From a virus, in the IMG/VR virus record IMGVR_UViG_3300034683_000233, positions 1 to 25,009 of that record: 25,009 nt of DNA; one strand, written 5' to 3'. Below the pieces are notes generated by a model. The model was not told the DNA's origin. It searched no databases and saw nothing but the letters and a program-made list of their open reading frames with translations. A program made the translations under genes and the position numbers. Positions 1,821 through 24,960 of the stretch are shown piece by piece (the first letter of the stretch is position 1; each line of letters starts with the position of its first letter).

Positions 1821-3535
1821 CAGTTCATACCTGCCGCATTATTGAGGTTTCCCTGCCCATTCATGTTCCTCTGCATCTCTGAGATCTGTTGCATCTGTTG
1901 CATCTGCTGTTGCTGTTGGATCATCTGCGCCTTTTGCTGTCGCATCTTGGCTACATCGGCAAGTTCCCTGAGAGCAGACTGTGGGAGTCCGGCTGCAGTG
2001 AGGGCCTTCCGTACAAAGACATCGGTATCGAGGTTGTCGAAAGCAGTGGTCATTTGCATTGCATGGAGGGCTTGTAACCATTCAAGGGAGGCTTGCAATC
2101 CATCCTGCATGGCGAACATCTTCACGTTCTTCGCAAGAGGCCCGTCCAGCTCGATTTTCATGAGTGCGTTCTTGACCCTGAGCATTTCCTTGGGAGGCTT
2201 TGGCAACCTGTTTCCCTTTGCCATGATTCTGAACACCCTTTTTACGATGGGGTTTATCTTCATGTACTGGGTCGTACCAAGGATGGAAGCGAGGAGTGCA
2301 AGTTCCTCACTCTTGATTGCCTGTGTCTGTGTGGCGGTGAGTACCTTGTCCTGTCGCATGAGATAGTTGAAGAGGTCGTTGAAGAACAGTCTCCCGATTT
2401 TCTCCTCAAGTTCCTTGATCTCATTGCTTACCCAACCGATATCCTGTACCGTCTGGATGATTTCCGGTTTCTGTTCGCTGTTTCCTACGTAGTTTCGTGC
2501 CCCTGGGTCGGAAGAGAACCTGCCCTTGAGGGATTCCGGCACTGCCATAGGAGGCTTTGCAACCTTCTGGATTGCCTCAAGCTCGTCCCTCGACATGGAA
2601 TTGAGTCTCTTCAGCTCTGTGATGTACTTCATGACCAGACCCTTGCCATAGACGGAAGTGCCATCTGGTTCAAAAACGTGTACAGCTACCGGAAACTCGT
2701 CATAACCGGATTCCTCAACGATACAATCATCAGTCGGGTAATAAGTGACAGCGGCATAAGGCTTCTCTGTGGAGATAAGCACCTTTCCTCGGTCACTCCG
2801 AAGCTTCTTTCTGGGGTAGATAGCCAAAATAAACTCATGCTCGGTATGTCCTGCATCTGTCTCAACCTCACGGACAATATCCTTTGGAGTCCTGTCCTTG
2901 AATCGGTCAAGAGCATCGGAGGCTGTCATGGTGAAGCGAATGAATATGGTATCAACCTTCCCCCTGTGGTTCTTGTCTATCCAGAAGTCCCACGGAGCGA
3001 TGGTCTCGAATACGCAAAGCCCGTCCTCAACATCGTCATACACCCATTCAGCAGAAGTACCCTGTACTGCAGCGTCCTTGGTGGCAAGCTTGTCCATCGG
3101 GTAGAAGTTGGTCTTGTTCAGCTCCGCATACATCTGGTTCTCGGAGATTTCAAGATAGTCGTTCGCACCGTGAATGGTGTCGGAGTCCTCGTAATTCTCA
3201 CCGATGAGGGTGAGCTTGAACCAACGCATGGAAGGGGTAATAAGATTTCCATGATAACCGTTGATGAAGGTGTCAAAGGCAAGTATCCCAGCGGTGTTGT
3301 AGAGCTTCACCGGCTTGATTGGGTTGTTGTTGTCTGAGAATTCATTCATCCTGTGCTGTACGTATGCACAAGCCTCCCAACGGAGTGCCTCGGATTTCTG
3401 ACGAATGGTCTTCATCCTGCTCCATTTGGAAGCAATCGCCTTCGCAAGCGGGTCATTACCTTGTTTCTTTACCGGTTCTCGTCGGCCCAGATAGTCAAGC
3501 GATCCGTTGTCGAGACCTACAGTCACAGTGTTCAT
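1820..3535 (-). CDS. Portal protein (head-to-tail connecting protein)
   Basis: A 571-residue protein of the podoviral 'bacteriophage head to tail connecting protein' family (T7 gp8 / epsilon15 portal type). The dodecamer forms the DNA channel at one head vertex and docks terminase and tail. Visible hallmarks are RWEACAYVQHRMNEF near the N-terminus, then LYNTAGILAFDTFINGYHG followed by LITPSMRWFKLTL, matching the family's 'l.d.tg..a...lasgl.g.ltsPs..WF.L' block. The extreme C-terminus is glutamine/methionine rich (MIQQQQQMQQMQQ), a low-complexity tail probably inside the channel or barrel. ATG 3535 has no clear ribosome site; a GTG at 3541 is an alternative. Length is normal for the family. 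Confidence 0.92.
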   Translation of the reverse strand: MNTVTVGLDNGSLDYLGRREPVKKQGNDPLAKAIASKWSRMKTIRQKSEALRWEACAYVQHRMNEFSDNNNPIKPVKLYNTAGILAFDTFINGYHGNLITPSMRWFKLTLIGENYEDSDTIHGANDYLEISENQMYAELNKTNFYPMDKLATKDAAVQGTSAEWVYDDVEDGLCVFETIAPWDFWIDKNHRGKVDTIFIRFTMTASDALDRFKDRTPKDIVREVETDAGHTEHEFILAIYPRKKLRSDRGKVLISTEKPYAAVTYYPTDDCIVEESGYDEFPVAVHVFEPDGTSVYGKGLVMKYITELKRLNSMSRDELEAIQKVAKPPMAVPESLKGRFSSDPGARNYVGNSEQKPEIIQTVQDIGWVSNEIKELEEKIGRLFFNDLFNYLMRQDKVLTATQTQAIKSEELALLASILGTTQYMKINPIVKRVFRIMAKGNRLPKPPKEMLRVKNALMKIELDGPLAKNVKMFAMQDGLQASLEWLQALHAMQMTTAFDNLDTDVFVRKALTAAGLPQSALRELADVAKMRQQKAQMIQQQQQMQQMQQISEMQRNMNGQGNLNNAAGMN

Positions 3536-3694
3536 GACCACAGTCTAGGAAATGTCAATAAGTCAATGTTGCTCGGAGGTAACGAGAATTTCTGGTTGAG
3601 AAAGTGTGATTGGAAAAGGTGTACAAATACTAAATATTGGCTTAGAATGATAATAGGTATTTGTTATTTGGTTTCAAAATATAAAGGACTTCTC

Positions 3695-4246
3695 ATGAAA
3701 AAAAATGTCATCATCTTCTGTCTCTTGGTAATTATTTGTACAATTCCATTGACCGCTTCAGATTTATTTTCAATTCTGGAATCTGCTAACTCAGTAGAAA
3801 TAAAACGAGCTATATCTAATGGAGCTGATGTGAATGCAAGGGATGAAAAAGGGAATACCCCATTGATGTATGCTGCGCAGTTTAATAAAAACCCAGAAGT
3901 GACACGTATGCTTCTGGATGCTGGGGCTGAGGTTAATACAAGAAATATATATGGCTGGACCCCATTGATGTATGCTGCGCAGTTTAATAAAAACCCAGAA
4001 GTGACACGTATGCTTCTGGATGCTGGGGCTGAGGTTAATGCAAAAAAAAAGGATGGCTGGACCCCATTGATGTATGCTGCTGCTGATAATGAAAATCCTG
4101 AAGTGATACATATACTACTGGAGGCTGGTGCTGATGGTAGTAATAAAAATTATTGGGGTGAGACTGCTTTAGATTATGCAAAAGAAAACGAAGCTCTAAA
4201 AGGGACTAAGGCATTTTGGGAATTGAATGATGCGAGTTATAAATAA
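3695..4246 (+). CDS. Secreted ankyrin-repeat protein (phage cargo gene)
   Basis: A 183-residue protein with an N-terminal signal peptide (residues 1-22: two Lys then a hydrophobic run ending TASD) and four ankyrin repeats from about residue 30. The repeats show G..PLMYAA and LL.AGA.vN, typical ankyrin helices; repeats 2 and 3 come from an exact 81-bp duplication. Ankyrin arrays bind other proteins, so a periplasmic or exported partner-binding role is likely but the partner is unknown. The gene lies on the plus strand between the leftward portal and large terminase genes and is much more AT-rich than they are, which marks it as a moron probably expressed from its own promoter in the lysogen. 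ATG 3695 was chosen because the signal peptide starts there; the upstream in-frame extension overlaps the portal start and looks non-coding. Confidence 0.85.
   Translation: MKKNVIIFCLLVIICTIPLTASDLFSILESANSVEIKRAISNGADVNARDEKGNTPLMYAAQFNKNPEVTRMLLDAGAEVNTRNIYGWTPLMYAAQFNKNPEVTRMLLDAGAEVNAKKKDGWTPLMYAAADNENPEVIHILLEAGADGSNKNYWGETALDYAKENEALKGTKAFWELNDASYK
3857..4039 (+). repeat. Exact 81-bp direct repeat inside the ankyrin gene
   Basis: Bases 3857-3937 and 3959-4039 are identical by eye, offset by 102 bp, which is exactly 34 codons or one ankyrin repeat. Synonymous positions are also identical, so the duplication is recent or kept uniform by recombination. Copy number could change without a frameshift. 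Confidence 0.92.
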
Positions 4247-11228: not shown

Positions 11229-11448
11229 AGACGAACCAATCAAGGTAACTCTAGACATGCACGTATTCCACAGGTGCGGAGATTTTGTGATAGTCCAGTA
11301 TTTCACAAGACCCTCCGAATCAGAGGCATTCATATACAACACCAAGACCAACAAATGCTATGGAGGTTATTACAGCATTGACGATGATGAATTGGTGGAA
11401 GATTGGAAAAACCTAACAGGAGAAGGCCCAGATGAAGAAGACGAATAA
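11212..11448 (+). CDS. Small acidic hypothetical protein
   Basis: A 78-residue protein overlapping the previous gene by 17 bp and the next by 17 bp. The core is beta-prone and aromatic (HRCGDFVIVQYFTRPSESEA, KCYGGYYSIDDD), the C-terminus acidic (GEGPDEEDE). No family recognised. The overlaps and the AAGAGGAGGAAG site before ATG 11212 support a coupled early operon gene. Confidence 0.65.
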   Translation: MSKLYEDEPIKVTLDMHVFHRCGDFVIVQYFTRPSESEAFIYNTKTNKCYGGYYSIDDDELVEDWKNLTGEGPDEEDE

Positions 11449-12310
11449 ACCAAAACAGACCGTATACGAGATTGTGACACAGAGGATGATTGACTATATC
11501 GAGCAGTACCAGGAGTTGCCTTGGATGAAGCCTTGGGCAACCGTAGAGTCCCCACAGAAGAACTTTGTGAGCATGAGGCCATACAACGGTATCAATGCGC
11601 TCCTGACAGGCATGAGTGGCTTCTCCAGCCCTTTCTGGATGACATTCAAGCAGGTGAAGGCCAAGGGTGGCACTGTCAAGAAAGGTGCGAAGGCTACACC
11701 TGTACTGTATTGGTCAACATTCGAAAAGAAGGTCGAGGATGAAGAGGATGAGGAAAAGCTGAAAAAGCTTGGGTTCCATCGAATGTATTTCATCTTCAAT
11801 GCAGACCAGATTGATGGCATAGAATTCCCCGAATTCGAGCTACCAAAGTATGACTTCAACCCTATCGATGAGGCTGAAAGGATCATTGAAAACATGCCGA
11901 ACAGACCGGCAATCAGCAGAAAAGGGACTGCAGCGTACTACACACCAATGTTGGATACTGTTACTGTACCGAAGCCGGAACTCTTTACGTTGCCGGAGGA
12001 GTTTTACAGCACACTTTTCCACGAATTGGCACACAGTACAGGCCATCCGAGCAGACTCAACAGGTTCAAGGAAGAGGGTGACAATCACCAGTTTGGCGGT
12101 CAGTCCTACAGCAAGGAGGAACTGGTAGCGGAAATGTCCTCAGCGTTCATATTGAACACGCTGGGAATCAACACAAAGAAGACTGATTACAACTCAGCAG
12201 GGTATCTGAAGGCATGGTTGAGAAAGCTTAAGGACGACCCGAAAATGGTAGTAACAGCCGCAAGTAAAGCAGGTAAAGCGGCAAATTATATTATGGGCAA
12301 GGAGGCCTAA
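11432..12310 (+). CDS. ArdC-like antirestriction protein (zincin metallopeptidase)
   Basis: A 292-residue protein with the ArdC layout: an N-terminal ssDNA-binding domain (VTQRMIDYIEQYQELPWMKP, W.KPW followed by RPYNGINALLT and FWMTFKQVKAKGG) and a C-terminal zincin domain with HELAH (197-201), followed by STGH and a downstream glutamate in KEELVAEMSSAF. The family includes plasmid ArdC and TraC-type primase N-termini; ArdC binds single-stranded DNA and protects incoming DNA from restriction. In a phage early operon this fits counter-defence or protection of replicating DNA. All catalytic residues are present. Actual substrates of the peptidase are not known from the sequence. Confidence 0.88.
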   Translation: MKKTNKPKQTVYEIVTQRMIDYIEQYQELPWMKPWATVESPQKNFVSMRPYNGINALLTGMSGFSSPFWMTFKQVKAKGGTVKKGAKATPVLYWSTFEKKVEDEEDEEKLKKLGFHRMYFIFNADQIDGIEFPEFELPKYDFNPIDEAERIIENMPNRPAISRKGTAAYYTPMLDTVTVPKPELFTLPEEFYSTLFHELAHSTGHPSRLNRFKEEGDNHQFGGQSYSKEELVAEMSSAFILNTLGINTKKTDYNSAGYLKAWLRKLKDDPKMVVTAASKAGKAANYIMGKEA

Positions 12311-12601: not shown

Positions 12602-13192
12602 ATGTTTTGCAATGAAAAGAAACAGGCACAGATACATGTTCTCAGGAATTTTCTTGACGACATGGAACAGGACACATCAAAGGACTCTGTAATCGAGGAT
12701 TTAGAGAGGCTTATAAACAGCAAGTCATGCGATTTGCGTGAGATTCGAGAAAGCCCTAGAATCAACGCTTTTGACTTCGGCAAGGATACAGCCAGGATTG
12801 TGAAAAGCATTGCGACAGAGGCTTTCTACAACGCAATGATGGACAATTCCAAGATGGACATGACTATTGAGATGAATCTGGTAAGGTGCTTCAAGAATTA
12901 CCTAGGTAAACTCATTGAGAATCCGAGGGAATCAGAGGCGGTGCGTATTTGCGATGAATGCGGAAAGGTGATGATTGAAGGGTATTGCCTTGGAGGTGGT
13001 GAGGAGTACTACTGCTCCGATGAATGCCTGCACAAGAATTACTCCCATGAGGAGTTCCTGGCTATGTATGCAGGTCTTGACAATACAGACCCAGCAGAGG
13101 TTGAGAGGGCTTCAAAGATGTCACAGGAAGAGCTTGACAGGCTCAGCGATGAAAACGACTCACAGAGTTATTACACGGATTGGGAGATATAA
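12602..13192 (+). CDS. Hypothetical protein with zinc-finger motif
   Basis: A 196-residue protein. Residues 1-110 are helical and charged; a cysteine cluster CDECGKVMIEGYCLGG continuing to YYCSDECLHK (about 117-145) looks like a small zinc finger of CxxC...CxxxC type; the C-terminal part is acidic and helical (PAEVERASKMSQEELDRLSD). I do not recognise the family. A GAGGAG site precedes the ATG. Metal-binding and nucleic-acid or protein contact are plausible inferences. Confidence 0.65.
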   Translation: MFCNEKKQAQIHVLRNFLDDMEQDTSKDSVIEDLERLINSKSCDLREIRESPRINAFDFGKDTARIVKSIATEAFYNAMMDNSKMDMTIEMNLVRCFKNYLGKLIENPRESEAVRICDECGKVMIEGYCLGGGEEYYCSDECLHKNYSHEEFLAMYAGLDNTDPAEVERASKMSQEELDRLSDENDSQSYYTDWEI

Positions 13193-13194
13193 CC

Positions 13195-13665
13195 ATGAGA
13201 AAAGAGATTGTAAAACGATATGAAAAAATGAAAAAGCAGGAGCTGATAGACGTGTTGGTCAATTTTTCGGTAAGGGAAAGATGCTCCATATCGACCCCTA
13301 AAGACAGTGTCGAGGAACTGAGGAGATGTCTCTCTCCAGCAGAGATTATCGCAAAAGAGTATTTCATTGTACTAACCCTAAATGGTGCCCATAAAACAAT
13401 TGATAGCCACATCGTTTCAAGTGGTCTAGTAAACAGGACACTTGTTCATCCGAGGGAGGTGTTCCGACCAGCGATACAAGACAATGCAACCGCAATCATC
13501 ATTGCACATAACCACCCAAGCGGAGATACCACACCAAGCACTGATGACAAGGACGTGACAAGGAGGATAAAGCAAGCAGGAGACCTGATTGGGATTAAGG
13601 TTTTGGATCATATCATCTTCACCAACGAAGACTATTTATCAATGCTGGAAAACAACATGTTTTAG
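13195..13665 (+). CDS. RadC-like JAB/MPN domain protein
   Basis: A 156-residue protein with the RadC-type MPN (JAB1) domain: IIIAHNHPSGDTTPSTDDKD around residues 101-120 carries the HxH and downstream acidic residue of the metal site, preceded by EYFIVLTLNGAHKTIDSHIV and FRPAIQDNATA, all typical. The N-terminal helix-hairpin-helix of full RadC is absent and replaced by ~45 helical residues. RadC-like proteins are common in mobile elements and phages, often beside antirestriction genes as here; their biochemical role is still unclear. ATG 13195 with GGAG upstream is preferred over TTG 13180. Confidence 0.88.
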   Translation: MRKEIVKRYEKMKKQELIDVLVNFSVRERCSISTPKDSVEELRRCLSPAEIIAKEYFIVLTLNGAHKTIDSHIVSSGLVNRTLVHPREVFRPAIQDNATAIIIAHNHPSGDTTPSTDDKDVTRRIKQAGDLIGIKVLDHIIFTNEDYLSMLENNMF

Positions 13666-19079: not shown

Positions 19080-19532
19080 GTGCCAAGTGCGAGAGAGAAG
19101 GCGTTGAAGGAGTTCCAGAGGTACAGACGATATGTGTGTGCTGATGCGAATGGTTACGCAAAATGTGTTTCCTGCGGGAAAATCGGACATGTCTCCAAGA
19201 TGGACGGTGGTCACTACGAAAGTCGAAAAACACGAGCAACTGAGTTGGACGCTGACAACGTATGGGCACAGTGCAAATATTGCAATGGCCCGTTATCTGG
19301 AAACCATATTGCGTACCGTAACCGCCTTCTCTCTCTCATTGGCCTTGAAAGACTGCAGAGGATAGAGGATATGGCAATGGCCTCCAAGGGTTCTGAGGAG
19401 GCAATGGAAAGGTTGTCAGAGGCTGACCGGTTACTGGTCACGACAAAGAAAAAGGACAAGGAATATCTGGAACTGGCAAAGCTCTATAAAAAGCTTGCTG
19501 ACGAGATAGCAAAGGAGAAGGTAATAAAATGA
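19080..19532 (+). CDS. ninG: NinG/Rap-like recombination nuclease
   Basis: A 150-residue protein with the NinG signature: CVSCGKIGHVSKMDGGHYES, then TELDADNVWAQCKYCNGPLS and GNHIAYRNRLL. Two CxxC pairs make the zinc site, and the conserved D.GHy/H..N residues form the HNH-like active site. Lambda NinG (Rap) resolves Holliday junctions and D-loops for the Red pathway. The C-terminal third is coiled coil and lysine-rich. GTG 19080 with GAGAGGA upstream is preferred to TTG 19074. Fits the exonuclease/ERF/NinB/SSB set. Confidence 0.88.
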   Translation: MPSAREKALKEFQRYRRYVCADANGYAKCVSCGKIGHVSKMDGGHYESRKTRATELDADNVWAQCKYCNGPLSGNHIAYRNRLLSLIGLERLQRIEDMAMASKGSEEAMERLSEADRLLVTTKKKDKEYLELAKLYKKLADEIAKEKVIK

Positions 19533-19876
19533 AAGAGCTATTCTTTTTTAGGCATTATATGACCGAGCTGCAGAATCCAGCGATTGCAGCATTGTATAAG
19601 AAATTCGGAGCGAAGGGTTACGGAATGTATTGGCATCTGCTTGAAAGATTGTATGCAGATGAAGCGCATATGCTCCCCAATGGCGTGATTCTTGAACAGA
19701 GTCTTGCTTCCTCATTGAAGCTGAGCAGATTCACTGTACGGAGAATCCTCAACACCATGAGGGAATTGGGGCTTATCAGCAAGCATGGCTCATTCATCAC
19801 TTGTGAGAGGGTGGAGAATGAGATCAGGCAGGTGGAAAAGTGCCGAAGCAGAAACCGTAGCCCACAGGCTTCATGA
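19529..19876 (+). CDS. Phage replication protein N-terminal domain (Lin1244/Lin1753-like), short
   Basis: A 115-residue protein with FFFRHYMTELQNPAIAALYK, GAKGYGMYWHLLERLYADEA and a winged helix LASSLKLSRFTVRRILNTMR. This is the N-terminal domain of phage DnaD/primosome-like proteins, where it binds DNA. Family members usually carry on for another 100 or more residues; here the frame ends at a polar CRSRNRSPQAS, 25-30 bp before the 36-nt repeat array. The gene may be truncated by arrival of that array, or be a short functional form. ATG overlaps the ninG-like stop (ATGA). Confidence 0.78.
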   Translation: MKELFFFRHYMTELQNPAIAALYKKFGAKGYGMYWHLLERLYADEAHMLPNGVILEQSLASSLKLSRFTVRRILNTMRELGLISKHGSFITCERVENEIRQVEKCRSRNRSPQAS

Positions 19877-19891
19877 CGTTCTCCAAATACC

Positions 19892-20646
19892 AGTGTGGCA
19901 GATAACAGCATAATCATAGAGTGAACCAAAAAGACTGAAACGAAAGCAAAATTGATGAGTGAACCAAGACTAAGCGAAAACAGCATGATATAAAAGTGAA
20001 CCTTTTCATATGAGTAAATCTAGAGAATTGTGTGAGTCGTACTGACGAGAACAGCATATATATGAGCGAGTTTACGCATTAGAAAACACCAGAATCTTAG
20101 AGCGAATCAAGAAAAGCAATTAACAGCACAACAGGAAAGTGAATCATTTTTCAGAGAGGCGATCATAGAAGTGAGTGAGTCAAGTAAGAGGAAGAATACA
20201 TTCCTGAAGAGCGAACCATAAAGCAAAAGATCATCAGTTGAACCTAGTGAGTCAGTAGTCAAGAAAGCAACAGAACGTAGGAGCGAGCCGAGTGTCAGAA
20301 AGGAGCAGTATAGAAGAGCGAGTCATTGACTGAGATAACAGTAAAGTAGATGAGCGAGTCAAGAATCAGATAACAACAAAGTAGATGAGCGAGTCAAAAA
20401 GGTTGATAAATACATTTTGCAGAGCGAGCTCTTAAATTAAGAAAACATCAAATCACTGGAGCGAGTTAACCTCCCTAAAAAAATCATTTGAAAAGGGCGA
20501 GCCATAGTTTCGATAACAGCACAAACGAGAGCGAACCCGATAATGAGAGAACATCACAAACGGTAAGTGCGTCAGGTGCAAGGAGAGAGTCAGTACAGAT
20601 AAGCGAGTCATTAAAATTGATATACCACAAAAAATGGGAGCGAATC
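19892..20646 (+). repeat. TIGR-like array of 36-nt dual-spacer repeats
   Basis: A gene-free stretch built from two alternating degenerate blocks. Block 1, AGYGARYC (often GAGCGAGTCA), starts at 19920, 19958, 19995, 20031, 20065, 20101, 20138, 20174, 20210, 20246, 20282, 20317, 20353, 20388, 20423, 20460, 20496, 20530, 20566, 20602 and 20639: 21 copies, mean spacing 35.95. Block 2, consensus GATAACAGCA, lies midway (best at 19901, 19975, 20047, 20334, 20369, 20405, 20441, 20512, 20547). Each unit is thus 8 + ~9 variable + 10 + ~9 variable. TIGR arrays yield 36-nt tigRNAs with two ~9-nt spacers, which matches exactly, and the next gene encodes a Nop/IS110-like protein. The transcribed strand is inferred to be plus. 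Confidence 0.88.
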
Positions 20647-20687
20647 ATAAGAACGATTGTTACTAAATCATTATTAAGGAGAAAATT

Positions 20688-21488
20688 ATGCAATCAGAAG
20701 AACAAAGAATGAGAATTAAGGGAATCGTGAGAACCATCTATGATTATCAGGATATAAGGATAAAGATGGGCAATCGCTTACGGTTCAAGAAGGATGGGAA
20801 CGACCAGAAGGACAATGGTACTGAAATGGTTATCAATGCCGAGGATATCCCCTCCCTGGTCGATGCCTACGATGATTCCAAGGATATTGAGGAGAATCTG
20901 GTAAAGTCCCTCAACAAGGAACTCAAGGGCATTCCTGTCTATGACAAGTTTCTCAAGAATGTTAAGGGTATCGGGCCGATGATGGCGGCTGTCATTATCT
21001 CCGAATACGATATTCATAAAGCCCATACCATCAGTGCAATGGTGCAGTTCACAGGACTCAATCCTGGTCTTGTGAAGGGCAGGAAGATGAAGGATGGGAA
21101 GATTGTTGTCACAGACGATATGATCCGTGGAGACAAGCTCACCGCAGGGTATCTTGCTCCCTACAATGCAAGGCTGAGAACGAAGATGCTTGGGGTGCTT
21201 GGCTCTTCATTCCTTAAATCGAAAAGCCCTTATGCGAAATTCTACTATGACTATAAGAACCGTCTGGAGAATGAGGCAAGGGAAATCGAGGGACGTGAGG
21301 GCAAGACGTGGAATGAGACCACAGCAAAACACCGTCACAACGCAGCTGTCCGGTTCATGATGAAAGCATTCATCAGAGACCTGTACTACGCTTGGAGAGA
21401 GCTTGAGGGTCTTCCTACCAGATGCCCATACGAGGAAGAGTACCTTGGTATTAAACACCATGACTATAGTAAGGAGAAAACAGCATGA
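20688..21488 (+). CDS. Nop/IS110-like Tas protein (nuclease-less, TasA-like)
   Basis: A 266-residue protein. After a helical, charged N-terminus (1-85) comes VKGIGPMMAAVIISEYDIHK (92-111) and AMVQFTGLNPGLVKGRKM (117-134), the helix-hairpin-helix signature of the C-terminal domain of IS110/IS116 transposases, then a long basic helical part (GYLAPYNARLRTKMLGVLGS; HNAAVRFMMKAFIRDLYYAW). The IS110 RuvC-like DEDD domain and its catalytic serine region are absent, and there is no HNH motif. Tas proteins of TIGR systems share this Nop-like fold with box C/D snoRNPs and IS110. AAGGAGAAAATT precedes the ATG, 42 bp after the last repeat, so array and gene form one locus. Expected role: tigRNA binding and guided DNA binding without cutting. 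Confidence 0.82.
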   Translation: MQSEEQRMRIKGIVRTIYDYQDIRIKMGNRLRFKKDGNDQKDNGTEMVINAEDIPSLVDAYDDSKDIEENLVKSLNKELKGIPVYDKFLKNVKGIGPMMAAVIISEYDIHKAHTISAMVQFTGLNPGLVKGRKMKDGKIVVTDDMIRGDKLTAGYLAPYNARLRTKMLGVLGSSFLKSKSPYAKFYYDYKNRLENEAREIEGREGKTWNETTAKHRHNAAVRFMMKAFIRDLYYAWRELEGLPTRCPYEEEYLGIKHHDYSKEKTA

Positions 21489-23469: not shown

Positions 23470-24774
23470 TTACACCAATGTATCTACTCTCCCTCTTATA
23501 CCCTGCAGTTGCTCAAGTTTCCTTCTCCCTTCTCGATGGTCATAGCTCTCACAATATTTGGTATGTCCCATCAGTTCAAGAATCTGGTTCTTTTCCAACT
23601 CACCGGATATTGCAGTCTGGAATGAGTGGCGAAGACTGTACTCAGTTCTCCCCTCCAGCCTCACCCCTGCCCTTTCTGCATATGTTATGAAATGCTTATT
23701 CGATGTGTAGGTGGTTATAAGCCTGCCTTTTGATAAGAACAAATACTCCTGTTCTAAGGGAAGGCTCAATAAGTACTGGTCAAGGAGTCTGCAACACTGT
23801 GAGTTGAGCAGGCCAACTTTGTAACGCTTGCCAACCCTTGTTGTCTTGATCCTCTCAACCACTTCCCTCTTCCATGAGCAGACTGCCTGAGTTGTAAAAA
23901 CACCACCAAGGTCTGGGAAGTAGTTTTCTCTTTTCATGCCAGCAATCTCTCCTGGTCTGAAACCAGTGCAGCGCATGATACTGAAATACACAGCCCACTT
24001 CAGATTACCCCAAACCCATTCGACCTGCTTGTCGTTTTCAGGGAATAGTATTGCTATCTCATCCCTAGTGATTGGCAGTCTTGGGTTGCTTCTCTCAACA
24101 ATCTTGAGGATTTTCTTGCATGGGTTGCTATCGATATGCCCATTTATCTCTGCTTCCTCCATTATGTTGTTGAGGCACTCGAATATCTTGTTCTTTGTAC
24201 TTGGGGATAAGTCTCCCTTGGTTCTAAAGCTTTTCAGCGATACGTACCATCGTTCTATCGTTACCCTATTCAAATTATTCAAGCAAACATCACCGAAAAC
24301 AGGAAGGATGTAGTTCTGAAGCCTACCATCCATTGCAAAGAAATAATCATCCTGATATTCCTTGCCCTTCCTGATGCAGCTTGCTCTGAAAGACATTTCG
24401 TCTGTTCTGGTGTAAAAACCTTCAGAGAATTCCTCCAAAGTTAATTCATCTCTTTTAATTTCCCTGAGCTGGGCCTCAGCCCAAATGGTTGCATTGATCT
24501 CATCATCGTAACCAGAGGATACCCACTTGTCAGTGCCCTTGAACATGACCTGTATGTTCCGGCCTTTTCTTCTGGTCATCTTGAAGCCCTTGTGTACTGG
24601 CGTCTGGATGTATCCTGTCTTATTTCTAATTTTTGATTCTGCCCACAATTCTGCATCATGCTTTGTGTAGCAACCGGAAGATACCCATTTGTTGGTACCT
24701 TCAAACATGACTTGGACACAACGACCAGTGCGCTGTGTCAATTTATACGGAGACTTTTTTTTCATGGGATTCAT
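23470..24774 (-). CDS. int: Tyrosine integrase
   Basis: A 434-residue site-specific recombinase. The catalytic domain shows R273 in TGFRPGEIAG, R382 in YSLRHSF (Tyr in place of the first His of HxxR), H404 in LMGHT and the nucleophile Y411 in SYDH. A SAM-like core-binding domain precedes it. The N-terminus carries two related ~45-residue arm-binding repeats: residues 11-49 (RTGRCVQVMFEGTNKWVSSG) and 65-103 (RKGRNIQVMFKGTDKWVSSG). It lies 114 bp from the tRNA-Phe 3' end, so it integrates the phage there. No strong ribosome site is seen; ATG 24774 or 24765 (MKKKSPY) are candidates. Confidence 0.94.
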   Translation of the reverse strand: MNPMKKKSPYKLTQRTGRCVQVMFEGTNKWVSSGCYTKHDAELWAESKIRNKTGYIQTPVHKGFKMTRRKGRNIQVMFKGTDKWVSSGYDDEINATIWAEAQLREIKRDELTLEEFSEGFYTRTDEMSFRASCIRKGKEYQDDYFFAMDGRLQNYILPVFGDVCLNNLNRVTIERWYVSLKSFRTKGDLSPSTKNKIFECLNNIMEEAEINGHIDSNPCKKILKIVERSNPRLPITRDEIAILFPENDKQVEWVWGNLKWAVYFSIMRCTGFRPGEIAGMKRENYFPDLGGVFTTQAVCSWKREVVERIKTTRVGKRYKVGLLNSQCCRLLDQYLLSLPLEQEYLFLSKGRLITTYTSNKHFITYAERAGVRLEGRTEYSLRHSFQTAISGELEKNQILELMGHTKYCESYDHREGRRKLEQLQGIRGRVDTLV

Positions 24775-24810
24775 TATTGTAATAAATAAGTGAATTGTAA
24801 AGCTCTTTTG

Positions 24811-24844
24811 TGTACAAAAATGTACAGTTGTACATCAGTGTACA
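24811..24844. promoter_or_regulatory. Four TGTACA palindromes beside integrase
   Basis: TGTACA at 24811, 24821, 24829 and 24839 (spacing 10, 8, 10) between the int start and the tRNA. The regular near-helical spacing suggests arm-type integrase or excisionase sites, or an operator for int. Confidence 0.65.
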
Positions 24845-24887
24845 CAAGCAAGCTATTACAAAGTAAGGATTTAACTCCTTAATGTTT

Positions 24888-24960
24888 TGCCGCCTCTCAG
24901 AATTGAACTGAGGACACAAGGATTTTCAGTCCTTTGCTCTACCAACTGAGCTAAAGCGGC
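24888..24960 (-). tRNA. tRNA-Phe (GAA), likely attachment site
   Basis: The minus strand folds as a complete cloverleaf: acceptor GCCGCTT / AGGCGGC, D arm GCTC..GAGC, anticodon loop CTGAAAA (GAA), T arm CTCAG-TTCAATT-CTGAG, discriminator A. No CCA is encoded. The 3' end faces the integrase, the usual arrangement when a tyrosine recombinase uses the 3' part of a tRNA as att core. The matching second att copy is not in the window and should lie past the left end of the phage. Confidence 0.95.

What the first reader, a model, noticed from the sequence alone, without database searches (positions are those of the whole stretch)
19892..21488. TIGR-Tas-like RNA-guided locus in a prophage: 36-nt dual-spacer array next to a Nop/IS110-like protein
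Seen: 21 copies of AGYGARYC with a mean spacing of 35.95 nt, alternating with GATAACAGCA-like blocks, leaving two variable ~9-nt segments per unit, with no ORF; 42 bp later a gene for a 266-aa protein with VKGIGPMMAAVII and FTGLNPG. Known: the TIGR-Tas family (described in 2025 by Faure and colleagues) has arrays processed to 36-nt guides with two spacers and a Nop-domain protein related to the IS110 guide-RNA-binding part. Inference: this is a nuclease-less TasA-type system, whose guides would bind, not cut, DNA, and may silence competing phages, plasmids or host genes. The repeats are so degenerate that routine CRISPR or tandem repeat finders would miss them.
Basis: partly seen in the sequence, partly recalled or inferred. 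Interest (0 to 1): 0.95.

Follow-up and report, generated by a model that had tools for sequence, protein, structure and literature searches.

The report
Phage TIGR-TasA guide-RNA array
A spirochaete (Sphaerochaeta) prophage carries a nuclease-less member of the recently described TIGR-Tas RNA-guided DNA-binding systems; its apparently sloppy repeats turn out to be matched pairs that close each 36-letter guide RNA, which pins down the guide's ends although its targets remain unknown.

Summary
A strand-specific array of 21 repeats (AGYGARYCA, mean spacing 35.95 nt) plus a leading half-repeat lies just upstream of a 266-aa protein. The protein passes the cut-off of NCBIfam's TIGR-Tas model (139 bits, cut-off 100). 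Its predicted fold matches TasH and TasR, then IS110-type structures, and it has no HNH or RuvC domain, so it is a TasA. The published TIGR-TasH array of Salicola phage CGphi29 has the same edge repeat, unit length and 8-nt spacers. Six Sphaerochaeta-group genomes and many IMG/VR phages carry relatives, most with arrays. New here: the "degenerate" repeats are compensated. Base 6 of each edge repeat pairs with base 3 of the NEXT one in 20/20 units of this array, and in 232 of 234 unique units over 19 arrays. A second stacked pair (7 with 2) is weaker but supported. This marks each guide as running from the middle of one edge repeat to the middle of the next. Spacers change more slowly than loops, suggesting selection on the guides. 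No target was found in own or related phages, 2.3 Mb of a lysogenic host chromosome, or (four guides) 26 related genomes. The biological role is inferred.

The parts
19888..20647 (+). TIGR dual-repeat array: leading half-edge plus 21 edge repeats alternating with loop repeats; 21 predicted guides (tigRNAs)
   Evidence: same array design at the same place in L001, L002, L004, L029, L030
19888..19892 (+). 5'-truncated first edge repeat (TACCA, only the box C half), as described for published TIGR arrays
   Evidence: sequence; A19889 would pair with T19922 of the next edge, as in all later units
19893..19919 (+). first guide: spacer A 19893-19900, loop GATAACAGCA 19901-19910, spacer B 19911-19918, then G19919, the first base of the next 10-nt edge
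   Evidence: sequence
19920..20638 (+). 20 full units (edge repeat plus two spacers and a loop). Edge repeats start at 19920, 19958, 19995, 20031, 20065, 20101, 20138, 20174, 20210, 20246, 20282, 20317, 20353, 20388, 20423, 20460, 20496, 20530, 20566, 20602 (last edge at 20639)
   Evidence: each unit keeps a Watson-Crick pair between base 6 of its own edge and base 3 of the next edge (20/20)
20639..20647 (+). last edge repeat AGCGAATCA, which closes the final guide; no terminator-like site follows before tasA
20676..20681 (+). Shine-Dalgarno-like AAGGAG of tasA, 6 nt before the ATG
   Evidence: sequence
20688..21488 (+). tasA: 266-aa Nop/IS110-RNA-binding-domain protein without a nuclease domain
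   Evidence: NCBIfam NF052498 139.2 bits, cut-off 100; phmmer to TasH 9e-14 and TasR 2e-11; Foldseek to TasH/TasR up to 2e-9; PHROG 4285 5e-38
19529..19876 (+). context: Lin1244_N / phage replication-initiation-like gene directly upstream of the array
   Evidence: a gene of similar size and sequence in the same place in L002 and L004
19074..19532 (+). context: NinG/Rap-like phage recombination nuclease
   Evidence: same order in L002 and L004
23470..24774 (-). context: tyrosine integrase next to tRNA-Phe (24888-24960), a likely attachment site

Best explanation
This is a TIGR-TasA system of a temperate Sphaerochaeta phage. Inferred: the array is transcribed rightwards with tasA as part of the phage's early/replication operon, and the transcript is cut inside each edge repeat (between bases 3 and 6, most likely G4|A5) into about 36-nt tigRNAs. 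Supported by covariation: each tigRNA is closed by two stacked pairs between its ends (base 6 with base 3 of the next edge, base 7 with base 2 of the next edge). Inferred by homology: a TasA dimer holds one tigRNA, and the two spacers (about 8 nt each) pair with opposite strands of one DNA site of about 16 bp. With no nuclease, the complex would bind and bend DNA and block transcription or replication there rather than cut. Most likely use: silencing rival mobile elements not represented in the collections searched. Shown here: family membership, array anatomy, end-pairing, slower change in spacers than in loops, whole-unit gain and loss. Not shown: expression, processing, binding, targets. 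The confidence given is for the identity and guide anatomy; for the silencing of rival elements as the role it would be about 0.5.
For: Protein family and fold. No nuclease domain. Array real and strand-specific. Same repeats as the published SpTIGR array. End-pairing: 20/20 Watson-Crick in the window (exact chance 1/77,520 given its 13 G-C and 7 A-U; permutation 1e-5). Over 19 arrays, 234 unique units give 133 G-C, 93 A-U, 6 G-U and 2 unpaired; within-array z = 29.8 for pair 6-3' and 5.1 for pair 7-2' (A-U in 13 of the 15 units in which base 2' is A). Same-edge, previous-edge and skip-one controls leave 10-11% unpaired against 1%. Spacers vary less than loops in orthologous units (odds ratio 0.48-0.56, P 0.004-0.014). 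Whole units gained or lost between window, L001 and L029. No terminator-like site between array and tasA.
Against: No natural target found: no excess over shuffled guides in own/related phages or in 2.31 Mb of the G027 chromosome, and no exact match of four conserved guides in 26 genus genomes. IMG/VR matches number what chance predicts and no contig is hit by two guides. So the silencing of rivals is inferred from the absence of a nuclease and the turnover of units, not shown. The AlphaFold model is of moderate confidence (pLDDT 67.6).
Confidence: 0.9

Rival explanations
1. Same TIGR-TasA machinery, but the guides regulate genes of the bacterial host or of the phage itself (an RNA-guided repressor, comparable in logic to phage-borne nuclease-dead TnpB repressors; that comparison is from general knowledge).
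For: No nuclease, so binding host DNA need not kill; spacers change more slowly than loops, as expected for stable targets; location in the replication region of a temperate phage.
Against: No excess of matches over partner-shuffled guides in 2.31 Mb (74% of the main contig) of the G027 chromosome or in own and related phage DNA; four conserved guides have no exact match in 26 genus genomes. One perfect match in the opposite geometry (a guide of L002 in G027) fits chance. No shared units were detected between the lineages compared.
Confidence: 0.2
2. The complex bends target DNA to help the phage integrase or replication machinery rather than to silence rivals.
For: TasR bends DNA by about 180 degrees and Faure et al. 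suggest aid to integrases (PMC12045711); the locus is a prophage with an integrase.
Against: The integrase region of the window is only about 75% alike in G027 (and the neighbouring tRNA differs, Leu instead of Phe) while array and tasA stay about 95% alike; more than 20 different guides are more than one attachment site would need; no matches in the available chromosome.
Confidence: 0.06
3. A decaying, non-functional array whose repeats have drifted.
For: Edge and loop repeats vary more than in the published Salicola array; unit length varies 34-38 nt.
Against: Perfect cross-unit pairing (20/20) and absence of A.C mispairs in the Sphaerochaeta arrays require continuing selection; tasA is intact and 97-98% identical in protein among the nearest relatives; spacers are constrained.
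Confidence: 0.03
4. An IS110-type transposon remnant next to an unrelated repeat.
For: Pfam Transposase_20 just above cut-off; PHROG 4285 is labelled transposase.
Against: Much better match to the TIGR-Tas model than to the IS110 model (139 bits against 18); no catalytic domain found; arrays recur beside most relatives tested.
Confidence: 0.01

Closest known systems
TIGR-TasA of Flavonifractor plautii (FpTIGR; Faure et al. 2025, PMC12045711)
   Same: Solo Nop-domain protein without nuclease beside a dual-repeat array; FpTasA was shown to bind 36-nt tigRNAs.
   Different: FpTIGR sequence was not compared here; the Sphaerochaeta array lies upstream of and adjoining tasA, has 21 guides (27 edges in L029), two classes of closing pair within one array, and about 8-nt spacers (Fp: 18 nt for both spacers together).
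TIGR-TasH of Salicola phage CGphi29 (SpTIGR; published as TasH in PMC12045711)
   Same: Edge repeat AAGCGAGYCA against (G)AGYGARYCA here; 10-nt edge, 8-nt spacers, 10-nt loop, 36-nt unit; homologous Nop region (solved TasH: phmmer 9e-14, Foldseek 2e-9).
   Different: TasH carries an N-terminal HNH nuclease and its array is downstream; its closing pair is always G-C and its loops are more uniform (mostly AAGACAACCA).
TIGR-TasR (PDB 9mty)
   Same: Same Nop fold and the same two closing pairs (the box C/D pair plus one more), seen there in the structure.
   Different: RuvC nuclease; in Faure et al. the extra pair was supported by covariation between arrays, here by variation within single arrays.
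IS110/IS621 bridge-RNA recombinases
   Same: Shared RNA-binding fold (Foldseek probability 1.0, E about 0.01).
   Different: No DEDD catalytic domain found; an array of short units in place of a bridge RNA.

Membership tests
TIGR-Tas | Protein with the Nop-type RNA-binding domain of the Tas family | tested here: met
   NCBIfam NF052498 139 bits, cut-off 100; Foldseek top 11 hits all TasH/TasR
TIGR-Tas | Adjacent array of two alternating 8-12-nt repeats with spacers of about 8-9 nt, unit 36 nt | tested here: met
   the published Salicola array used as a yardstick
[quoted passage not shown]
   TACCA at 19888-19892
[quoted passage not shown]
   The last edge is complete and no terminator-like site is found; the array leads into tasA. 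Published arrays may lie upstream and/or downstream of tas, so this is a typical, not a defining, feature
TIGR-Tas | Box C / box D pairing between the two ends of each tigRNA | tested here: met
   Pairs 6-3' (z 29.8) and 7-2' (z 5.1) by within-array covariation
TIGR-Tas | Processing to 36-nt tigRNAs bound by Tas | not testable with these tools
   Needs small-RNA sequencing; the covariation fixes the expected ends
TIGR-Tas | Tandem-spacer DNA targeting on opposite strands | tested here: inconclusive
   No target found; absence of targets does not test binding
TasA subtype | No HNH or RuvC nuclease domain fused | tested here: met
   266 aa; aligns from residue 123 of TasR, and the well-scoring part aligns from residue 183 of TasH; no nuclease domain in Pfam or NCBIfam
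IS110 transposase | Match to the IS110 transposase model at its curated cut-off | tested here: not met
   NCBIfam IS110 18 bits, cut-off 140

The most novel reading that the evidence does not exclude
TIGR arrays evolve in tigRNA-shaped modules: each half of an edge repeat belongs to a different guide, units enter and leave with breakpoints inside the edge repeat so that end-pairing is kept, and TasA phages keep guides under selection against a stable set of rival elements without any adaptation genes.
Probability: 0.25. Interest if true: 0.75.

Novelty: new member of a known kind. Interest (0 to 1): 0.6.

Why it matters
What TasA does, where its spacers come from and what it targets are open questions stated by the discoverers, who note that most systems sit in metagenomes. 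Here closely related arrays sit in near-complete single-contig Sphaerochaeta-group chromosomes (G006, G014, G027), so native expression, processing and targets could be tested in lysogens if those strains are cultured. The within-array covariation gives a sequence-only way to confirm TIGR arrays and locate guide ends, including arrays whose repeats look too degenerate for repeat finders.

Tried and rejected
Target search in both possible geometries (A then reverse complement of B, or the reverse), gaps 0-2, spacers of 9+9 and 8+8: nothing beyond partner-shuffled controls in phage DNA or the G027 chromosome. A perfect 18-nt match of an L002 guide is in the less likely geometry, in AT-rich DNA, and fits chance. 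Four conserved guides against 26 genus genomes: none. Three guides against IMG/VR: 44, 25 and 59 hits, chance level, no contig hit twice. Profile search in the phylum added no new relative. Loop-internal covariation: no convincing pair. Breakpoint comparison between orthologous arrays: suggestive but too few events. Rejected: IS110 remnant, decayed array, chance.

Full report
What was checked. The array is real: 21 edge repeats AGYGARYCA, all on the + strand, mean spacing 35.95 nt, range 34-38. A chaining score of 15.5 compares with at most 1.55 in 500 dinucleotide-preserving shuffles and 1.0 elsewhere in the window or on the other strand. A leading half-edge TACCA (19888-19892) precedes the first guide. 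Each unit reads as 10-nt edge, about 8-nt spacer A, 10-nt loop ending in CA, about 8-nt spacer B.

The protein. The 266-aa product of 20688-21488 passes NCBIfam's TIGR-Tas model (139 bits, cut-off 100) and fails the IS110 model (18 bits, cut-off 140). It matches the sequences of solved TasH (8.8e-14) and TasR (1.8e-11). Its predicted structure (mean pLDDT 67.6) matches 11 TasH/TasR chains first and IS621/ISCro4 next. No nuclease domain is found, and the TasR alignment starts only at residue 123. It is therefore a TasA; NCBI's name for the model ('endonuclease') would mislabel it.

Relatives. In the group around G001 (26 genomes), six carry a relative; G001 is the genome of L001, Sphaerochaeta sp. 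S2. G001, G002, G006, G014 and G027 carry close ones (76-98% identity), each with an array just upstream of tasA. Two IMG/VR phages do too. G012 has a 42%-identical one, with an array of very regular units. A query with that protein found 17 further IMG/VR loci, most with arrays of the same edge type. The published Salicola phage CGphi29 array and a Microcystis phage array share the design. In L002 and L004 the gene order around the array is the same. The G027 copy lies in a chromosome next to tRNA-Leu, while the window's integrase lies next to tRNA-Phe, so the TIGR module travels with different integrases.

The key new result. Number the edge repeat A1 G2 Y3 G4 A5 R6 Y7 C8 A9. In the window, R6 of every edge is the Watson-Crick partner of Y3 of the next edge, 20 of 20 (13 G-C, 7 A-U; given those numbers, the chance is 1/77,520; permutation 1e-5). 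Pairing R6 with Y3 of the same edge, the previous edge or the edge after next leaves about 20% unpaired. Over 19 arrays, 234 unique units give 133 G-C, 93 A-U, 6 G-U and 2 unpaired; the within-array z-score is 29.8. The only other pair of positions that clearly stands out is Y7 with G2 of the next edge (z 5.1): when base 2 is A, base 7 is T in 13 of 15 units. These two stacked pairs correspond to the box C/D pair and the extra pair seen in the TasR structure and supported there by covariation between arrays (PMC12045711). Here the support comes from inside single arrays and reaches TasA systems. It implies that the functional RNA runs from the middle of one edge repeat to the middle of the next, that is about 36 nt, and that the 'degenerate' repeats are under selection.

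Evolution of the array. Window, L001 and L029 share most units, in order, and differ by whole-unit gains and losses. In 38 groups of orthologous units, variable columns are rarer in spacers than in loops (43/684 against 37/344, P 0.014; core positions P 0.004). No orthologous unit was detected between window and L002 or between L002 and L004, although their TasA proteins are about 75-78% identical to the window's. So guides are kept within a lineage and replaced between lineages.

Targets. The geometry used (spacer A, gap 0-2, reverse complement of spacer B on one strand) follows from the 3' overhangs and the C-5 rule in PMC12045711; that paper also contains one sentence that fits the opposite reading, so both were tested. 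Nothing exceeded shuffled controls in own or related phages or in 2.31 Mb of the G027 chromosome. Four conserved guides have no exact match in 26 genomes. Three guides in IMG/VR give chance-level numbers and no contig with two guides. This weakens host-gene or self-regulation and leaves unseen mobile elements as the likeliest targets, but that is inference.

How it most likely works. Array and tasA have no terminator-like site between them and probably share a transcript in the phage early operon. The RNA is cut inside edge repeats by an unknown host RNase, as suspected for other TIGR systems (PMC12045711), TasA dimers hold the 36-nt RNA, and the complex binds and bends a site matched by both spacers without cutting. 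Family membership and end-pairing are shown; processing, binding and role are inferred.

Novelty. It is a new member of a known kind (TIGR-TasA, 2025). What is new is the within-array evidence for guide ends, the constraint on spacers, and sets of closely related TasA arrays in near-complete single-contig chromosomes.

Noticed in passing
window 11432-12310: ArdC-type anti-restriction protein (ArdcN plus zincin-like metallopeptidase) in the same early region: a counter-defence gene in the same phage.
   Followed up: partly
window 3353-4246: Ankyrin-repeat protein on the + strand within a region of - strand structural genes; possible lysogenic-conversion cargo.
   Followed up: no
window 13180-13665: Stand-alone RadC-like JAB domain protein in the early region.
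   Followed up: no
window 23470-24960; G027:C2 around 2.947 Mb: The integrase region differs between window (tRNA-Phe) and G027 (tRNA-Leu) while most of the rest of the window is about 84-95% identical: integrase and attachment-site exchange.
   Followed up: partly
L002 4968-4991; L030 1468-1491: In this lineage the last edge repeat directly abuts the ribosome-binding site of tasA (AGTGAACCA-AGGAG), which would let TasA binding or processing there limit its own translation.
   Followed up: no
L154, L159, L161 and other IMG/VR loci: Large, regular TIGR arrays of up to about 23 edge repeats in viral contigs beside Tas proteins of about 290-370 aa.
   Followed up: partly
NCBIfam NF052498: The model name 'TIGR-Tas system RNA-guided endonuclease' also catches nuclease-less TasA proteins such as this one, so automatic annotation will call them endonucleases.
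   Followed up: yes
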